Position numbers and translations under genes: made by a program. From positions 1 through 37,623 of the IMG/VR virus record IMGVR_UViG_3300008266_000598: DNA of 37,623 nucleotides; one strand, 5' to 3'. The notes beneath the pieces were generated by a model that saw only the letters and a program-made list of their open reading frames with translations, searched no databases and was not told where the DNA came from. Origin of the DNA: a virus. Numbering within the stretch: the stretch's first letter is position 1; the number at the start of each line of letters is the position of its first letter. Of this stretch, positions 14,728-20,899 are shown in pieces.

Positions 14728-17028
14728 TTGAATAACTTTTTAGAATATATCACAGGTTTAGCCCTTGAGGGTGAAACAGCCCTAATCGTCCGCCAAAAAC
14801 CACAATTACAGGGTGGTGAGTTGCAATTCCATGCCGATGGCGTGATTAAATGCACTTGGCCGTCTTTTTTGCCCAATCACAAAATGCGTGATAACGAGGC
14901 ATGGTACGGCAACACCGGCAGCTTCATTGTGGATCGCTTTACCGATGGCAAGCCTAGCGCCTCGTCTGCCAACTGCGAATATGTCCTGTGCATGATGCTT
15001 GATGATATTGGCACCAAGTCTAAAGAGCCACCACTTGCGCCGACATGGATTATGGAAACGTCTGAGGGGTCATTCCAATGGGGGTATGCGTTTATTGAGC
15101 AGCCGACCAAGGGTGAGTTTACGGCAGCAATCAAGGCGATTGCCAAGGCAGGCTTTACCGATCCGGGTGCTACCAACGCCGTTCGCAATTTCCGTTTGCC
15201 AGGCTCAATTAATCTGAAGCCTGGACGCAACAACTTTGCTTCCCGCTTAATTGAGTTCCACCCTGAGCGTGAGTTCACCTTACCGCAAATCTGCGAGGCT
15301 TTGGGTGTGGTGCCTGAACCAGCTGACACCGCTACGGCAGAGTCGGTCAAGCTCGTTGATACAGGCAAAGACAAGGTATTGACGTGGCTTAACGATCAGG
15401 GCTTAGTATTGTCGCCTGTCAATCGTGAGGGCTGGGTAGCAGTCGTTTGCCCCAATAGCGCTGAACACACCACGGGCGAGGTCGAAGCACGTTACAAGCC
15501 CCTTGACCGCTCCTTCTGTTGCTACCACGGCCATTGCCAGCACTTAAGCAGCCGTGAATTTTTAGATTGGGTTGCCGAAAATGACGGCCCAAGTGTCGAT
15601 CACGGCCTGCGTGATGAATTATTAGCCGAGCGAATGAACATGGTTTTAGACAAGATCAAGCCCACCGAGGCGTTCCCTGATGATGCACAGAAGATCATTG
15701 CCGAGGTCGAGCGTAAGCAGTTGGGTCGCGTTGAGCGTGAACAATGGTACAAGCGTTTTGCGTATGTGCAAGACGATGAGAGTTTCTTTGATCTGCAAGA
15801 CCGCCGTGAGATCGGGCGTACGACCTTTAACGCTCTTTATCGCCATATCTCTTGCAAGTCCCTTCACACAGGGCGTCGCATTGAGGCGTCCGTCTGTTTT
15901 GACGAGAACCGCCAAGCCAATGGTGCGCAGGCACTTGTGGGCATTACTTACGCTGCTGGTGAGTCGGTGGTAGTTGAGCGTGATGGCGACTTGTACGGCA
16001 ATCGTTGGCGTGACGCTCGCCCTGACGTATCGGGCGTAAAAGTCGGCGACATTTCCTTATGGCTCAATCATGCCAAGACGCTTGTGCCTGAGCCTGATGA
16101 ATTGAATCATATCCTTGACGTAATGGCGTTCAAAGTTCAGCACCCTGAGATCAAGGTCAATCACGCTATTCTGCATGGTGGCGATCAAGGTGCGGGTAAA
16201 GACACCTTTTGGGCGCCGTTCATTTGGGCAATCTGTGGACCGCACCTGAAGAATCGCGGCATCATGGATAACCAAAGCATGAATAGCCAATGGGGTTATC
16301 AGTTGGAGTCTGAGATTCTGTTGATTAACGAATTGAAAGAACCCGATGCGGCGACTCGTCGGCAGTTGGCGAACCAACTCAAACCCATCATCGCAGCACC
16401 GCCTGAGATGCTCTCGATTAACCGCAAAGGCTTGCACCCTTACCAAATGGCCAATCGCCTGTTTGTGTTGGCGTTCTCTAACGACCCTGTACCGATTAGC
16501 TTAGACAGCCAAGATCGTCGGTGGTTCTGCGTGTGGAGTTCTGCACCCAAGATGAACGCTGATCGTGCCAAGGCGATGTGGGCGTGGTATCGGTCGGGTG
16601 GTTTTGAGCAGATCGGTCGCTTTTTGCGTGATAGAGATATTTCAAAATTTAATCCCGCAGCACCCCCCGCTTGGACTGAATTCAAAGCCAACTTGGTTGA
16701 GCATGGCATGAGCATGGCAGAGTCGTTCTTGGTGGATATGCTTCGTAATCGTACAGGCGAGTTCGCAAAAGGCGTGATAGGCTCACCCTTCTTTGCCTTG
16801 TGCGATCGCTTGGCAGGCACAGCCCCATCAGGCGTGAAAGTACCGCAGGCTGCGCTTTTGCACGCTCTCAAAGAAGCCGAATGGGTGGACTGTGGTCGCA
16901 TCAAGTCGAGCGAATTTCAATCTAAAAAGAACGTGTGGTGCGCGCCTGATATGGCAGATTTAAGCAAGTCCGAACTGCGACGTATGGTTGAAGTCGATCC
17001 TGTACCGCATTTGGTTAGGGTCAAATAA
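14728..17028 (+). CDS. Primase-helicase (prim-pol-like N-terminus, SF3-like ATPase C-terminus)
   Basis: The 766-residue protein has three recognisable parts. The N-terminus resembles a RepB/AEP-type primase, with an acidic LDDIG (near residue 92) and NFRLPGSINLKPG (near 154-166). A Cys/His group (CPNSAEH, CCYHGHCQH, about 239-273) could bind zinc. The C-terminal half is a phage DUF5906-type ATPase with Walker A GGDQGAGKDT (484-493), an acidic INELKEPD segment and FVLAFSNDPVPI as a sensor-like strand. It probably primes and unwinds DNA for the family A polymerase just upstream. A TTG start is chosen because AGTAAAGGAG lies 7 bases upstream. Confidence 0.85.
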   Translation: MNNFLEYITGLALEGETALIVRQKPQLQGGELQFHADGVIKCTWPSFLPNHKMRDNEAWYGNTGSFIVDRFTDGKPSASSANCEYVLCMMLDDIGTKSKEPPLAPTWIMETSEGSFQWGYAFIEQPTKGEFTAAIKAIAKAGFTDPGATNAVRNFRLPGSINLKPGRNNFASRLIEFHPEREFTLPQICEALGVVPEPADTATAESVKLVDTGKDKVLTWLNDQGLVLSPVNREGWVAVVCPNSAEHTTGEVEARYKPLDRSFCCYHGHCQHLSSREFLDWVAENDGPSVDHGLRDELLAERMNMVLDKIKPTEAFPDDAQKIIAEVERKQLGRVEREQWYKRFAYVQDDESFFDLQDRREIGRTTFNALYRHISCKSLHTGRRIEASVCFDENRQANGAQALVGITYAAGESVVVERDGDLYGNRWRDARPDVSGVKVGDISLWLNHAKTLVPEPDELNHILDVMAFKVQHPEIKVNHAILHGGDQGAGKDTFWAPFIWAICGPHLKNRGIMDNQSMNSQWGYQLESEILLINELKEPDAATRRQLANQLKPIIAAPPEMLSINRKGLHPYQMANRLFVLAFSNDPVPISLDSQDRRWFCVWSSAPKMNADRAKAMWAWYRSGGFEQIGRFLRDRDISKFNPAAPPAWTEFKANLVEHGMSMAESFLVDMLRNRTGEFAKGVIGSPFFALCDRLAGTAPSGVKVPQAALLHALKEAEWVDCGRIKSSEFQSKKNVWCAPDMADLSKSELRRMVEVDPVPHLVRVK

Positions 17029-17029
17029 A

Positions 17030-17119
17030 GCGTGCCAGTCGCTTTTTGCGTGCCAGTCGCTTTTTGCGTGCCAGTCGCTTTTTGCGTGCCAGTCGCTTTT
17101 TGCGTGACCATTACTTTTT
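17030..17119. repeat. 18-bp tandem repeat, 4 perfect copies plus 1 degenerate
   Basis: The unit GCGTGCCAGTCGCTTTTT occurs four times without change (17030-17101), and a diverged copy follows to about 17119. It begins one base after the primase-helicase stop codon. The next 70 bases (17121-17190) are AT-rich, with runs of A and T. Tandem repeats beside an AT-rich segment directly downstream of a replication gene are typical of origins or of Rep-binding sites, but this is inference. Confidence 0.9.
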
Positions 17120-17190
17120 ACAGCCGAAATTCAAAATTTATATATTGATATAAGTCAAAAATTTCAGCAAAAAAATTTGGCAAAAATCGG

Positions 17191-17334
17191 GTCGAGCTGG
17201 TCGAGCTGGTCGAGCTGGTCGAGCTGGTCGAGCTGGTCGAGCTGGTCGAGCTGGTCGAGCTGGTCGAGTTGGTCTAGCTGGTCGAGCTGGTCGAGTTGGT
17301 CTAGCTGGTCGAGTTGGTCTAGCTGGTCGAGCTG
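17191..17334. repeat. 9-bp tandem repeat array, 16 units
   Basis: Sixteen consecutive 9-base units of GTCGAGCTG fill this interval. Units 1-8, 11 and 16 are identical; the others differ at position 4 (G to T) or position 7 (C to T), and variants at units 9-10, 12-13 and 14-15 occur as an 18-base pair. In one minus-strand frame every unit reads Gln-Leu-Asp and both variants are silent. A 64-residue frame (17358 to 17164) spans the array, but it lacks a clear ribosome binding site and lies beyond a strong terminator, so I list the DNA as a repeat. Confidence 0.95.
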
Positions 17335-17360: not shown

Positions 17361-17542
17361 GCCTTGTTTTATAAGGGTTTGCGGATTAGGCTCGTTTTGC
17401 CCTACCCTGTAAGCCTTATAAAATAAGGGTTTTGCTTGTCCAGGTCGCTGCCAAATTGTCCGCAAACCCTTACAGGGTAAGGCTTGATCTATTAGGTTTA
17501 ATTTAAGCAGTCTGCAAACCCTTATAAACAGGTCTGTAAGGC
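17361..17542. repeat. Four copies of an interrupted palindrome, consensus CAAACCCTTA-n-TAAGGC
   Basis: Copies lie at 17361-17384 and 17413-17434 (minus orientation) and at 17461-17483 and 17513-17542 (plus orientation). Each has CCCTTA and TAAGG arms that can pair; the intervening bases differ. Two more copies lie at 20783-20808 and 20824-20846, on the other side of the amidoligase operon. They could be binding sites, small hairpins or remnants of a mobile element. I see no gene here: the only long frame (17603 to 17358, minus) crosses a terminator and has no recognisable product. Confidence 0.7.
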
Positions 17543-17592: not shown

Positions 17593-17655
17593 TTAAAGGT
17601 CAAATAAGAGAGCCAATAACCAAATGATTAAAAATACACATAGAGCGATCATCAT
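17593..17655 (-). CDS. Membrane micropeptide, 20 aa
   Basis: The frame encodes MMIALCVFLIIWLLALLFDL, a single hydrophobic helix and nothing else. Its ATG overlaps the stop of the preceding 29-residue peptide by four bases (ATGA). It is the last frame before the operon terminator. So short a frame could be chance, but the overlap, the hydrophobic sequence and the position make a real micropeptide plausible. Confidence 0.4.
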   Translation of the reverse strand: MMIALCVFLIIWLLALLFDL

Positions 17656-17741
17656 GGCAGTAAAAACAAGAGCATGAGTAAAACTACCCCAAATAGTAAA
17701 AAACAGCTTATATCGTCTTTTGTGAGCTTATCGTGGTTCAT
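17652..17741 (-). CDS. Small membrane peptide, 29 aa
   Basis: A polar start (MNHDKLTKDDIS) is followed by one membrane helix (about residues 13-28, rich in Leu, Phe and Val). A GGAG ribosome binding site lies 9 bases upstream of the ATG. The start overlaps the end of the 66-residue gene by 14 bases, and the stop overlaps the next micropeptide. It is probably an inner-membrane peptide of the amidoligase operon; no family is known to me. Confidence 0.55.
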   Translation of the reverse strand: MNHDKLTKDDISCFLLFGVVLLMLLFLLP

Positions 17742-17928
17742 GGTTTATATCTCCTATTTCGATTGTGTCGTAATGTTCGGAAGTGCCCAAACCGCAATCC
17801 TGCCATTCTGCCAAATTAAGATCATCATTAAAAGCTCGCTCGTTTGCTTGCTCTAATGTATCTGCTTGAATGGTCTTAGAGTGCCATTGGGTAGTAGTTA
17901 ATAAAACTTTATATAGTGGCATATTCAT
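17728..17928 (-). CDS. Small hypothetical protein of the amidoligase operon, 66 aa
   Basis: The protein (MNMPLYKVLLTTTQWHSKTI...) has a beta strand, an Ala/Glu helix (LEQANERAF) and an acidic end. The strand-helix pattern is loosely like small DpnD/PcfM-type proteins, but I would not assign it. Its start overlaps the amidotransferase gene by 20 bases. AAGGA is too close to the first ATG and better spaced (9 bases) for the ATG at 17922, which would give 64 residues. Confidence 0.65.
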   Translation of the reverse strand: MNMPLYKVLLTTTQWHSKTIQADTLEQANERAFNDDLNLAEWQDCGLGTSEHYDTIEIGDINHEPR

Positions 17929-18922
17929 TATTCCTTGATAAGTATGGAAAACACTCCAGAGCGAGCTTGTGATCGGTCATAACCTTAATGAACCACTCCT
18001 CGTCAATGGCTTTGTCCATCACCATCTCGCATATCTCCTTGAAATCCTCTAGCGAGAACTTCTCAATAAAATCCAGAGCTTTTGAGCTGGAGAGCTTTCC
18101 AGCATGAGAGAAACCCATATATTTAAGATCATCAAGATATATCTCGACTTCATTACATGCGATGTCATACCATTCCGAGTAATCCAGCTCACTCTCGTCT
18201 AGGCTTGTGCCGTTGTAATCCACATACCCATAATTGCTGGCATATTTGCTGGTGTACTTGCTGGAGTAGATCGGTCTGGCTTCTGGCTTCTCCTTTGACT
18301 GCTTGATCTGCTTCTTAATACCCTTTACAGGGCTTTTACTTGCTGATTTGGTCGCACTCCAAGCATAGGTATTACTGAGCCACAATCCTGCCCAATACAC
18401 TCCAGAGCTTTGATTGATGACAGTTTGCCTACCCTCATTGTCCATTAGGATAAATTTATTACTTGCCCCAATATGCTCGCCTACTATCTCGGCAAATGCT
18501 GGAGTAAAGGCAAAGTCTGGATTAGCTGAGAGCATGGGTTTTAGATAGTCATTGATATAGTGCCATGTGTCGCTCTTGGTCTCGTCTGCTTTATTACCCG
18601 TTGATAAAATGCCATTGTGCATAAGCCATAGATCAATACCATGAACTGATCGGGTCAATACCTCGTATGGGTGACAATTATCCAGATCAATATCCCCATG
18701 GGTTCTCATACGCAAATGGAAAGCACAATCTCTACCCACTATCTCAGAGTGATAAAACTGAATGAACTCCTCTGCTGATTTGGGTAATACTTTACGAATG
18801 ATGAGATCACCATGATTTGCAGTCATTATTCCAACTCCATCAGAATTGAAAGAGTAAAAATCCTCTAACCATTCATTACTTAGGATCGGGCTTGTCGCTG
18901 ATTGTTTTACAAGTAAACACAT
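17909..18922 (-). CDS. Class II glutamine amidotransferase (Ntn hydrolase), 337 aa
   Basis: The protein begins Met-Cys, so removal of Met exposes Cys2, the N-terminal nucleophile of class II amidotransferases. Further family landmarks are SDGVGIM (27-33), FHLRMRTHGD (68-77), NCHPYEV (82-88), LMHNGIL (100-106) and SDTW (117-120). The enzyme should hydrolyse glutamine to glutamate and pass ammonia to a partner. The last 150 residues are Lys/Ser/Tyr-rich and then acidic, and I cannot assign them. The gene lies 32 bases after the amidoligase; the two activities are known to pair in peptide-modifying systems. AAGGAC upstream is a usable ribosome binding site. Confidence 0.85.
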   Translation of the reverse strand: MCLLVKQSATSPILSNEWLEDFYSFNSDGVGIMTANHGDLIIRKVLPKSAEEFIQFYHSEIVGRDCAFHLRMRTHGDIDLDNCHPYEVLTRSVHGIDLWLMHNGILSTGNKADETKSDTWHYINDYLKPMLSANPDFAFTPAFAEIVGEHIGASNKFILMDNEGRQTVINQSSGVYWAGLWLSNTYAWSATKSASKSPVKGIKKQIKQSKEKPEARPIYSSKYTSKYASNYGYVDYNGTSLDESELDYSEWYDIACNEVEIYLDDLKYMGFSHAGKLSSSKALDFIEKFSLEDFKEICEMVMDKAIDEEWFIKVMTDHKLALECFPYLSRNNEYATI

Positions 18923-18954
18923 TTTATTTTGTCCTTATTCAAGTGATTAAAAAT

Positions 18955-20280
18955 TTATGCAACTGCTAATTGTTTTTCTACTGCTGGTAATACTGCTGGC
19001 TTTACGATCTCCAGCTTCATTGGTAAAACAAAACCTTTTTCTCTCAGATAAGAGCGTAAAAACTTACTATCCTTACGATTTTCTGGTTGACAGATAAATT
19101 CTAAAAACCCAGCAGTAGTGAGCTGGCTTGTGCTGGCTTCTCTGCAAAAGTGCCATGTCGCAAAGGTGAACTCCAAGCAAGCCATAATCGTCTCGTATTT
19201 CAAAGTACCTTTGAACAATCTGAACTCGACAGTCTTATCATTCTGAAAATTGAGAGCTTCGTAGCGGTCTGGATTTAACGATTGGATCTGGTCTTTTCGT
19301 TTTGTCCTAAGCAGTGCGTTTTTAATCCAGCTCTTGTCGCTCTTTTTATCGTAGATTTTGCAGTAGCTCGATTGATCTCGTCTGGCTAATGCAAACACTA
19401 GATCATGGTTTGCTGGATCATTGATAAAGAGAACCATTTTGCTCGCATGAAGTGTTGTCATGTCGCTTTTGCAAATATGCACATGGAGACCGCAAGTGCT
19501 GGTATTGTGGCTTGTTGCACCTTTGAACCTTGTATCAAAAAACTCCAACTGCTTCGCATGAACCTCTAAGCCTGTATAAGCAGTCACTAGCTCAAACCCT
19601 CTATCGATTGAGCAATCTTCTTCGCATAAGGCATAAAGGTAATTGTCGCTAGGGGTCTGGTATTGACCCAATGAACTCAATAACAATCCAGCTCGATCAT
19701 CAAGGTCGTATTTGCTTTCAATCTCCATCTCCAGCTCAAGACCTAGCAATACTCTAGGCTTACGCTGGTCGTACAGACTAGGAATATGACCCAGCTCATG
19801 CTTGCTGGAGTGTCTGCCCCCAATATTTTCGTATTCCCTATTCTCCTCGTCATAGTCTGGATCGTCTGTGTAGTAATTGTGATACTCACTCCAATGATAG
19901 TTATCCACACAATGGTCGCAAACCCCATAATCATCATGCACATTATGGTATTCATCATTCACAAAATAATCCGAGCAGTCTCCACATTGAAATATTGATT
20001 CATGGAAAACCGACTCAAATATGTCGCAAAAATTGTGACTGACCTCTTTTGACCGATACTCATTGATTAAGCCTAGAGCTTCGTTTGGGTCTTGATCTCG
20101 TACACATTGACCAAATGATTCTGCAAACTGCTTACGATTTGCTCTCCGTCTTTCGATCTGTGCAAGGGTTGTATTTGTCCGATATTGATAACAGTCTCTA
20201 TCGGGTCTATTGATCCTAAGATTGCTATCAATACGATCTTTTACACTCCAGCCCCTATGCTTTACTTCGATTAGATTCAT
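18955..20280 (-). CDS. COOH-NH2 amidoligase (Amidoligase_2, glutamine-synthetase-like fold), 441 aa
   Basis: Residues about 175-400 carry the amidoligase signature: LGLELEMEIE (179-188) with several acidic metal ligands, TCGLHVHI (262-269), and RYEALNF...TVEFRLFKGTL (339-360). The family joins a carboxylate to an amine at the cost of ATP. Upstream is a probable zinc ribbon with C99, C102, C121 and C124 inside a Tyr/Asp/His-rich stretch that could bind substrate. I chose the ATG at 20280, which has AAGGA 6 bases upstream; a longer frame from 20343 has no comparable site. It is the first gene of the leftward operon and would receive ammonia from the amidotransferase next to it. The substrate is unknown. 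Confidence 0.85.
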   Translation of the reverse strand: MNLIEVKHRGWSVKDRIDSNLRINRPDRDCYQYRTNTTLAQIERRRANRKQFAESFGQCVRDQDPNEALGLINEYRSKEVSHNFCDIFESVFHESIFQCGDCSDYFVNDEYHNVHDDYGVCDHCVDNYHWSEYHNYYTDDPDYDEENREYENIGGRHSSKHELGHIPSLYDQRKPRVLLGLELEMEIESKYDLDDRAGLLLSSLGQYQTPSDNYLYALCEEDCSIDRGFELVTAYTGLEVHAKQLEFFDTRFKGATSHNTSTCGLHVHICKSDMTTLHASKMVLFINDPANHDLVFALARRDQSSYCKIYDKKSDKSWIKNALLRTKRKDQIQSLNPDRYEALNFQNDKTVEFRLFKGTLKYETIMACLEFTFATWHFCREASTSQLTTAGFLEFICQPENRKDSKFLRSYLREKGFVLPMKLEIVKPAVLPAVEKQLAVA

Positions 20281-20374: not shown

Positions 20375-20899
20375 GGGTCATTGTTGGGGTCAATTGGGTC
20401 ATTGTTGGGTCATTTGAAAATGGTCTAAATGACCCATAAAAATGACCTGTTGGGGCTTATAAAATATAGAGTATGGGTCAAATGGGTCATTGTATTTGGC
20501 TTATTTAATAAGGTTTACAAGTCTGGTATTGGCTCTGCACGAATGTTGCAGGCTAGCGATTATTTTTGCCTGTCCAAATGACCCATATGACCCATAAAAT
20601 CCAGCTCTCGCCTACCCGTCTTTTTAGCTCGCTGGAAAATGCCAAGAGCTTTATGGGTCATATGGGTCATTCAAAACTATATGACCCCAATGACCCCAGA
20701 GCTTGTTTGTTTGTGTCCCAGAGCTTGTTTGTGTGTCGCTGAACTTTTAACAAACATAAAATGACCCCAATGACCCATAACCCGCAAACCCTTATTCTAT
20801 ATGGCTTTCAGGCTTGCATGACCCGCAAACCCTTACGCAGTAAGGCTTTCAGGTCAATGCTTAAAAATTAGGCAGGCACCCCCCCAGGGCCGGGGGTCA
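20375..20899. repeat. Iteron-like field: 17 copies of GGGTCA/TGACCC
   Basis: GGGTCA starts at 20375, 20387, 20396, 20407, 20475, 20484, 20655, 20664 and 20894; TGACCC starts at 20430, 20579, 20588, 20682, 20691, 20762, 20771 and 20819. Six pairs (20387/20396, 20475/20484, 20579/20588, 20655/20664, 20682/20691, 20762/20771) are direct repeats exactly 9 bases apart. The field fills most of the gene-free stretch 20344-20970 between divergent operons, and a T/A-rich tract (20931-20953) lies beside it. It looks like a binding field for a phage protein: origin, packaging site or operator. Confidence 0.9.
20783..20846. repeat. Two more copies of the CAAACCCTTA palindrome family
   Basis: Copies at 20783-20808 (CGCAAACCCTTATTCTATAT then GGC) and 20824-20846 (CGCAAACCCTTACGCAGTAA then GGC) match those at 17461 and 17513. 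The second can form a CCTTAC/GTAAGG hairpin. Both are followed by TTTCAGG. They lie inside the GGGTCA field. Confidence 0.7.

What the first reader, a model, noticed from the sequence alone, without database searches (positions are those of the whole stretch)
17593..20280. Phage amidoligase plus class II glutamine amidotransferase operon
Seen: a leftward operon encodes an amidoligase (GxExExE, TCGLHVHI, EFRLFKGT) with a Cys4 zinc-ribbon-like insert, then a class II amidotransferase with Cys2 nucleophile, then a 66-residue protein and two membrane micropeptides, ending in a strong terminator. Known: amidoligases of the COOH-NH2 ligase superfamily pair with GATase II in predicted peptide-modification systems, and related genes exist in a few phages (phiEco32-like). 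Inference: the operon makes an amide or isopeptide modification of host envelope, host protein or virion. The Cys4/Tyr-Asp-His-rich N-terminal part and the membrane peptides may make it a distinct variant.
Basis: partly seen in the sequence, partly recalled or inferred. Interest (0 to 1): 0.8.

Follow-up and report, generated by a model that had tools for sequence, protein, structure and literature searches.

The report
Phage amidoligase–glutaminase pair cassette
A phage carries a compact pair of enzyme genes, one that joins a carboxyl group to an amine and one that releases ammonia from glutamine, which always travel together between phages and probably alter the infected cell's envelope; such pairing was already known, but this zinc-ribbon two-gene form with tiny membrane partners is a little-described variant.

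Summary
In detail: a leftward operon encodes an Amidoligase_2 enzyme (18955–20280) with a conserved N-terminal Cys4 element, a class II glutamine amidotransferase (GATase, 17909–18922), a 66-residue protein and two membrane micropeptides, and ends in a terminator. Folds and catalytic residues are intact. In related viral contigs the GATase directly follows the amidoligase in 88 of 88 distinct scorable genes, and the two co-diverge (r = 0.93). The pair sits at one fixed locus but is more diverged (52–54% identity) than its neighbours (74–82%), and its tree disagrees with the phage backbone: an exchangeable cassette. It is not the phiEco32/LUZ24/RIO-1 multi-gene cassette (no COOH-NH2 ligase or GGCT in 23 records); mycobacteriophage Marvin gp105–gp106 match far better. 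Micropeptides follow the GATase in 28 of 80 regions (0.6 expected). In Polynucleobacter the pair rides integrase/relaxase islands, in one lineage beside SIR2-HerA defence genes. Best reading: glutamine-fed amidation of an envelope or peptide carboxylate, favouring superinfection exclusion. The enzyme families are well supported; ammonia transfer, target and benefit are inferred. New variant of a known kind.

The parts
18955..20280 (-). Amidoligase_2 (441 aa); catalytic domain about residues 175-415, with invariant G180, E182, E184, D222, S224, G228, E230, C263, G264, H266, H268, R301, N344, T350, E352, R354
   Evidence: Pfam PF12224 E 7.5e-9; PHROG amidoligase families; 80-sequence alignment; AF2 pLDDT 89.6; Foldseek
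19909..19986 (-). N-terminal Cys4 (C99-x2-C102 ... C121-x2-C124) zinc-ribbon/LIM-like element of the amidoligase
   Evidence: All four Cys in 76 of 80 homologues; weak LIM similarity E 0.1; metal binding inferred, not shown
17909..18922 (-). Class II glutamine amidotransferase (337 aa): Ntn glutaminase domain with C2 nucleophile, R71, H84, N103-G104, D118, plus a C-terminal helical extension (about residues 248-336)
   Evidence: C2, R71, H84, N103, G104, D118 in 44 of 44; AF2; Foldseek GlmS/PurF/EgtC
17728..17928 (-). 66-aa small protein; relatives recur near other GATases
   Evidence: 11 relatives among 94 GATase-downstream regions; one relative weakly resembles DpnD/PcfM (E 0.012)
17652..17741 (-). 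29-aa single-pass membrane micropeptide, motif KDDI-x-C
   Evidence: Membrane micropeptide follows the GATase in 28 of 80 distinct regions versus mean 0.6, max 2 in shuffles and 4 on the antisense strand
17593..17655 (-). 20-aa second membrane micropeptide, start overlaps stop of the first
   Evidence: Read from sequence; similar second peptides in L031, L035, L049, L138
17550..17576 (-). Intrinsic-terminator-like stem-loop ending the operon
   Evidence: 10-pair stem, 6 GC pairs, T-run
20375..20824 (.). Upstream region with 14 ATGACCC copies on both strands; possible regulatory repeats
   Evidence: 22 copies in the window versus 3.1 expected; also in close relatives L002-L004

Best explanation
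The two genes encode one enzymatic unit. The class II GATase hydrolyses glutamine with Cys2 and supplies ammonia; the GS/GCS-fold amidoligase uses ATP and metal to activate a carboxylate, which then becomes an amide. The Cys4 element and the N-terminal helices probably bind the substrate or the partner, and the micropeptides, where present, probably place the pair at the inner membrane. The substrate is most likely a peptide carboxylate of the cell envelope (peptidoglycan precursor or similar), and the change most likely shuts out competing phages. Shown here: families, predicted folds, conserved catalytic residues, obligate pairing, co-divergence, cassette exchange. Inferred: ammonia transfer between the two, the membrane site, the substrate, superinfection exclusion.
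For: Both active sites intact over 80 and 44 homologues. GATase directly downstream in 88 of 88 distinct amidoligase genes with room, median spacing 26.5 nt (first count 82/82); reciprocal 64 of 65, the exception appearing to be a split gene. Mirror-tree r 0.93, 0.89 within the clade. Glutaminase-domain fold; carboxylate-amine ligase/GS-superfamily fold. Membrane micropeptides beyond chance. Conflict-like behaviour: fixed locus, median identity 52 and 54% versus 74-82% for primase, TerL and portal, one-clade test rejected p 4e-4, most relatives carry other cargo there. Islands with integrase and relaxase, one lineage beside SIR2-HerA. Literature predicts envelope modification against superinfection for such genes (PMC10580990, PMC5498523).
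Against: No experiment on any member was found. Many Clostridia/Oscillospirales amidoligases have no GATase next door, so the ligase fold does not always need ammonia from a neighbour. The SIR2-HerA neighbours come from two near-identical islands (93% DNA identity), effectively one event, and the third island lacks them. Alternative cargo at the phage locus is not recognisably defence. Micropeptides are absent in about two thirds of regions.
Confidence: 0.45

Rival explanations
1. Protecting-group or turnover cycle: the amidoligase attaches a gamma-glutamyl (or other amino acid) group by an amide bond and the GATase-fold enzyme is a gamma-glutamyl amidohydrolase that removes it or trims the product, as EgtC does in ergothioneine synthesis. 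No ammonia is passed.
For: Foldseek also finds EgtC, including complexes with its natural substrate (E about 1e-3). The same conserved residues would bind a gamma-glutamyl substrate. The GATase is a stand-alone protein. Ergothioneine synthesis also pairs a GCS-type ligase with a GATase-II-fold hydrolase (own knowledge).
Against: GlmS glutaminase scores better than EgtC (1.7e-6 versus 8e-4). The strict pairing and co-divergence suit a complex with channelled ammonia at least as well.
Confidence: 0.25
2. The pair modifies a phage or host protein (for example isopeptide or amide formation on RNA polymerase, translation factors or virion proteins) rather than the envelope.
For: The fold family includes the Pup ligase PafA and Dop. 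The Cys4 element could bind protein or nucleic acid; LIM-like similarity is weak.
Against: Membrane micropeptides downstream in many relatives point to the membrane. No Pup-like substrate gene seen.
Confidence: 0.2
3. Auxiliary metabolism: the enzymes make a small gamma-glutamyl or amide metabolite, or scavenge nitrogen, for phage growth.
For: Proposed for phage genes of these families in a Planctomycetes phage (PMC10945688).
Against: Accessory at its locus and fast diverging, unlike core metabolic helpers; also present on chromosomal islands.
Confidence: 0.1

Closest known systems
Mycobacteriophage Marvin gp105-gp106
   Same: Adjacent two-gene amidoligase plus class II GATase, Cys-rich N-terminus; profile E 3.5e-40 and 3.9e-21; no PF14395 in the record
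   Different: Mycobacterial host, several CxxC motifs, gp105 annotated as a GATase domain protein; micropeptides not examined there
OM43 phages MEP401/MEP402 (Zobellviridae) and ctgrD200
   Same: Adjacent amidoligase and GATase, GATase M-C start
   Different: About 29-35% identity; MEP proteins have a long divergent N-terminus; forward early operon
phiEco32/LUZ24/RIO-1 peptidoglycan-modification cassette
   Same: Contains an Amidoligase_2 and a class II GATase, predicted envelope modification (PMC5498523, PMC3890496)
   Different: Five or more genes with COOH-NH2 ligase, ATP-grasp and GGCT; UFV-P2 amidoligase only E 4e-9, RIO-1 and UFV-P2 GATases not hit; PF14395 found in UFV-P2 and phiEco32, not in 23 records of the present type
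MurT-GatD peptidoglycan amidation
   Same: Works like: ligase plus glutaminase giving an amidated Glu in peptidoglycan (PMC3267633, abstract)
   Different: Mur-ligase and class I GATase folds; unrelated (own knowledge)
EgtC with a GCS-type ligase in ergothioneine synthesis
   Same: Same two fold families (EgtC fold hit; the ligase from own knowledge)
   Different: Metabolite pathway; other partner genes

Membership tests
Amidoligase_2 (PF12224) | Profile match above the curated cut-off | tested here: met
   36.2 bits versus cut-off 22
Amidoligase_2 (PF12224) | Conserved metal/ATP and substrate residues of the GS/GCS-fold ligases | tested here: met
   16 invariant columns over 80 sequences; roles of individual residues inferred
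Amidoligase_2 (PF12224) | ATP-dependent amide ligation | not testable with these tools
   needs biochemistry
Class II glutamine amidotransferase (Ntn) | N-terminal Cys nucleophile, Arg and Asp glutamine-binding residues, HNG oxyanion motif | tested here: met
   C2, R71, D118, N103-G104 in 44 of 44
Class II glutamine amidotransferase (Ntn) | Ntn glutaminase fold | tested here: met
   AF2 plus Foldseek to GlmS glutaminase E 1.7e-6
Class II glutamine amidotransferase (Ntn) | Pfam GATase_4 curated cut-off | tested here: not met
   18.7 bits versus 23: a divergent member; this cut-off is not itself a defining property of the fold class, fold and residues decide
phiEco32/LUZ24/RIO-1 multi-gene cassette | COOH-NH2 ligase PF14395 in the record | tested here: not met
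   0 of 23 records incl. window; positive controls UFV-P2 and phiEco32 found; RIO-1 itself missed, so a divergent copy could be missed
phiEco32/LUZ24/RIO-1 multi-gene cassette | Gamma-glutamyl cyclotransferase PF06094 | tested here: not met
   0 of 23 records; control genomes rang
phiEco32/LUZ24/RIO-1 multi-gene cassette | ATP-grasp enzyme | not tested
   no dedicated search; none seen among the window genes scanned
Marvin-type two-gene pair | Cys-rich N-terminal amidoligase immediately followed by a GATase of the same profile | tested here: met
Anti-phage defence system | Listed in PADLOC | tested here: not met
   no PADLOC match for either enzyme
Anti-phage defence system | Repeated association with known defence genes | tested here: inconclusive
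   SIR2-HerA beside it in two near-identical islands only

The most novel reading that the evidence does not exclude
The Cys4 amidoligase, the GATase and the membrane micropeptides form a self-contained mobile exclusion or defence system, shared between phages and chromosomal islands, that protects a cell by amidating an envelope target; its rapid divergence would reflect an arms race with competing phages.
Probability: 0.25. Interest if true: 0.75.

Novelty: new variant of a known kind. Interest (0 to 1): 0.45.

Why it matters
Phage amidoligase/GATase genes have been annotated for over a decade and predicted to alter peptidoglycan, without a known product in the papers found here. This compact form needs only two enzymes, is always paired, and has a relative in a laboratory phage of Mycobacterium smegmatis, so a deletion and mass spectrometry could settle the question. 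The recurring micropeptides and the chromosomal islands give new handles on where it acts and who benefits.

Tried and rejected
Near-identity DNA search in phages found nothing. A prophage origin for the window phage was sought: no tyrosine integrase in the window, and only weak or partial primase matches in 399 genomes of the Polynucleobacter order. The idea that the locus is a pure defence hotspot was not supported: alternative cargo clusters read as a clamp-like protein, a metallophosphatase-like protein and small unknown proteins; this reading is by eye, not by profile. Membership in the phiEco32 cassette rejected. A first tree with loci too short to judge the backbone gave p 4e-75; I rely on the stricter one (p 4e-4), where long branches and four distant backbones remain a caveat. 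The Iyer 2009, Hardies 2013 and Marvin papers were not held and are known here only through papers that cite them. Solved-structure sequence search for the amidoligase matched only Cys-rich elements.

Full report
What is there. The window is a whole 37,623-base IMG/VR virus record, a P22-like podovirus by gene content: portal, P22-type head closure, scaffold, major head protein, ejection protein, endolysin and holin (the P22 likeness is my reading of the PHROG names). No integrase was found. Between the primase (ends 17028, +) and the terminase genes (from about 20905, +) lies a leftward operon: amidoligase, GATase, a 66-residue protein, a 29-residue and a 20-residue membrane peptide, and a terminator-like stem.

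Identity of the enzymes. The amidoligase passes the Pfam Amidoligase_2 cut-off and matches phage amidoligases by predicted fold at 3e-18. Against solved structures the matches are weak and at superfamily level (YbdK, GmaS, glutamine synthetase, PafA/Dop; TM-scores 0.2-0.4). Over 80 homologues sixteen columns never change, covering the GxExE, D-x-S, G-x-E, C-G-x-H-x-H, R, N and T-x-E-x-R motifs. The Cys4 element precedes the catalytic domain and is complete in 76 of 80. The GATase fails the Pfam cut-off but keeps the nucleophile, glutamine-binding and oxyanion residues in all 44 homologues, and its model matches the GlmS glutaminase domain, PurF and EgtC.

Pairing. In viral contigs every distinct amidoligase of this clade with sequence room downstream is followed by the GATase on the same strand (88 of 88, median 26.5 nt). 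Conversely 64 of 65 GATases have the amidoligase upstream. Distances in the two families correlate at 0.93 (0.89 within the clade), as for partners inherited together. Adjacent pairs also occur in ctgrD200 and MEP401/402 and in Marvin. Many Clostridia/Oscillospirales amidoligases lack an adjacent GATase.

A cassette that moves. In phages with the window's backbone the operon occupies the same antiparallel site, yet most relatives carry other genes there. When present, amidoligase and GATase share about 52% and 54% identity with the window's, against 74% for primase, 79% for TerL and 82% for portal. The window's GATase is closer to GATases from phages of other backbones (60-70%) than to most of its own kind, and a single clade for window-type phages is rejected (p 4e-4), with the caveat of long branches. 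In three of 151 Polynucleobacter genomes the pair sits on islands with an integrase and a relaxase. Between two of them a 2.8-kb block holding the pair is 88% identical in otherwise more diverged surroundings. In one island lineage SIR2-HerA defence genes follow.

Small partners. A short single-pass membrane peptide follows the GATase in 28 of 80 distinct regions, against 0.6 on average in dinucleotide shuffles and 4 on the opposite strand; 21 of the 28 have a ribosome-site-like sequence. Several share a (K/P)x(D/N)D-[IL]-x-C-A-like motif and occur in phages where no window-type backbone gene was seen, so they are not one lineage's oddity; related regions are not independent, however. The 66-residue protein has relatives in 11 of 94 regions.

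Comparison with the known. The literature describes phage cassettes with amidoligase, GATase, COOH-NH2 ligase, ATP-grasp and GGCT, predicted to change peptidoglycan and prevent superinfection (PMC5498523, PMC3890496, PMC11945000, PMC10580990). The present type lacks the COOH-NH2 ligase and GGCT in 23 records (controls), and its GATase profile does not hit the UFV-P2 or RIO-1 GATase, whereas Marvin gp105 and gp106 match at 3.5e-40 and 3.9e-21. I therefore file it as a Marvin-type two-gene variant.

Mechanism. The best-supported reading is glutamine-fed amidation of a carboxylate; the main rival is a gamma-glutamyl ligation and hydrolysis cycle as in EgtC. Membrane peptides and literature favour an envelope substrate, and the cassette behaviour favours a role in conflict with other phages. 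These last steps are inference. Confidence by step: enzyme families about 0.95; the two act together about 0.85; ammonia transfer about 0.6; envelope target about 0.5; superinfection exclusion about 0.45.

Noticed in passing
20375-20824: Fourteen ATGACCC copies, both orientations, often 9 bp apart, in 450 bp upstream of the amidoligase (22 in the window, 3.1 expected). Possibly operator sites.
   Followed up: partly
17373-17523 and 20784-20834: All five exact AAGGGTTTGC copies of the window lie in the two intergenic regions flanking the operon, within hairpin-like repeats; shared by close relatives. Possible cassette-boundary or regulatory repeats.
   Followed up: partly
17030-17119 and 17190-17334: Tandem repeats just after the primase stop at 17028: 18-bp unit x4.3, and 9-bp GGTCGAGCT x16.
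   Followed up: no
L307:2488-3849: Marvin gp105, annotated 'glutamine amidotransferase domain protein', matches the amidoligase profile at 3.5e-40; the GATase is gp106.
   Followed up: yes
L165:8795-11784, L166:8798-11757: SIR2-HerA defence genes next to the amidoligase-GATase pair on Polynucleobacter islands with integrase and relaxase.
   Followed up: partly
L167:9017-10267: 416-residue protein without Pfam or PADLOC match in the same island position as SIR2-HerA.
   Followed up: no
L170-L208: Butyricicoccus/Agathobaculum relatives carry several amidoligase copies per genome, mostly without adjacent GATase.
   Followed up: no
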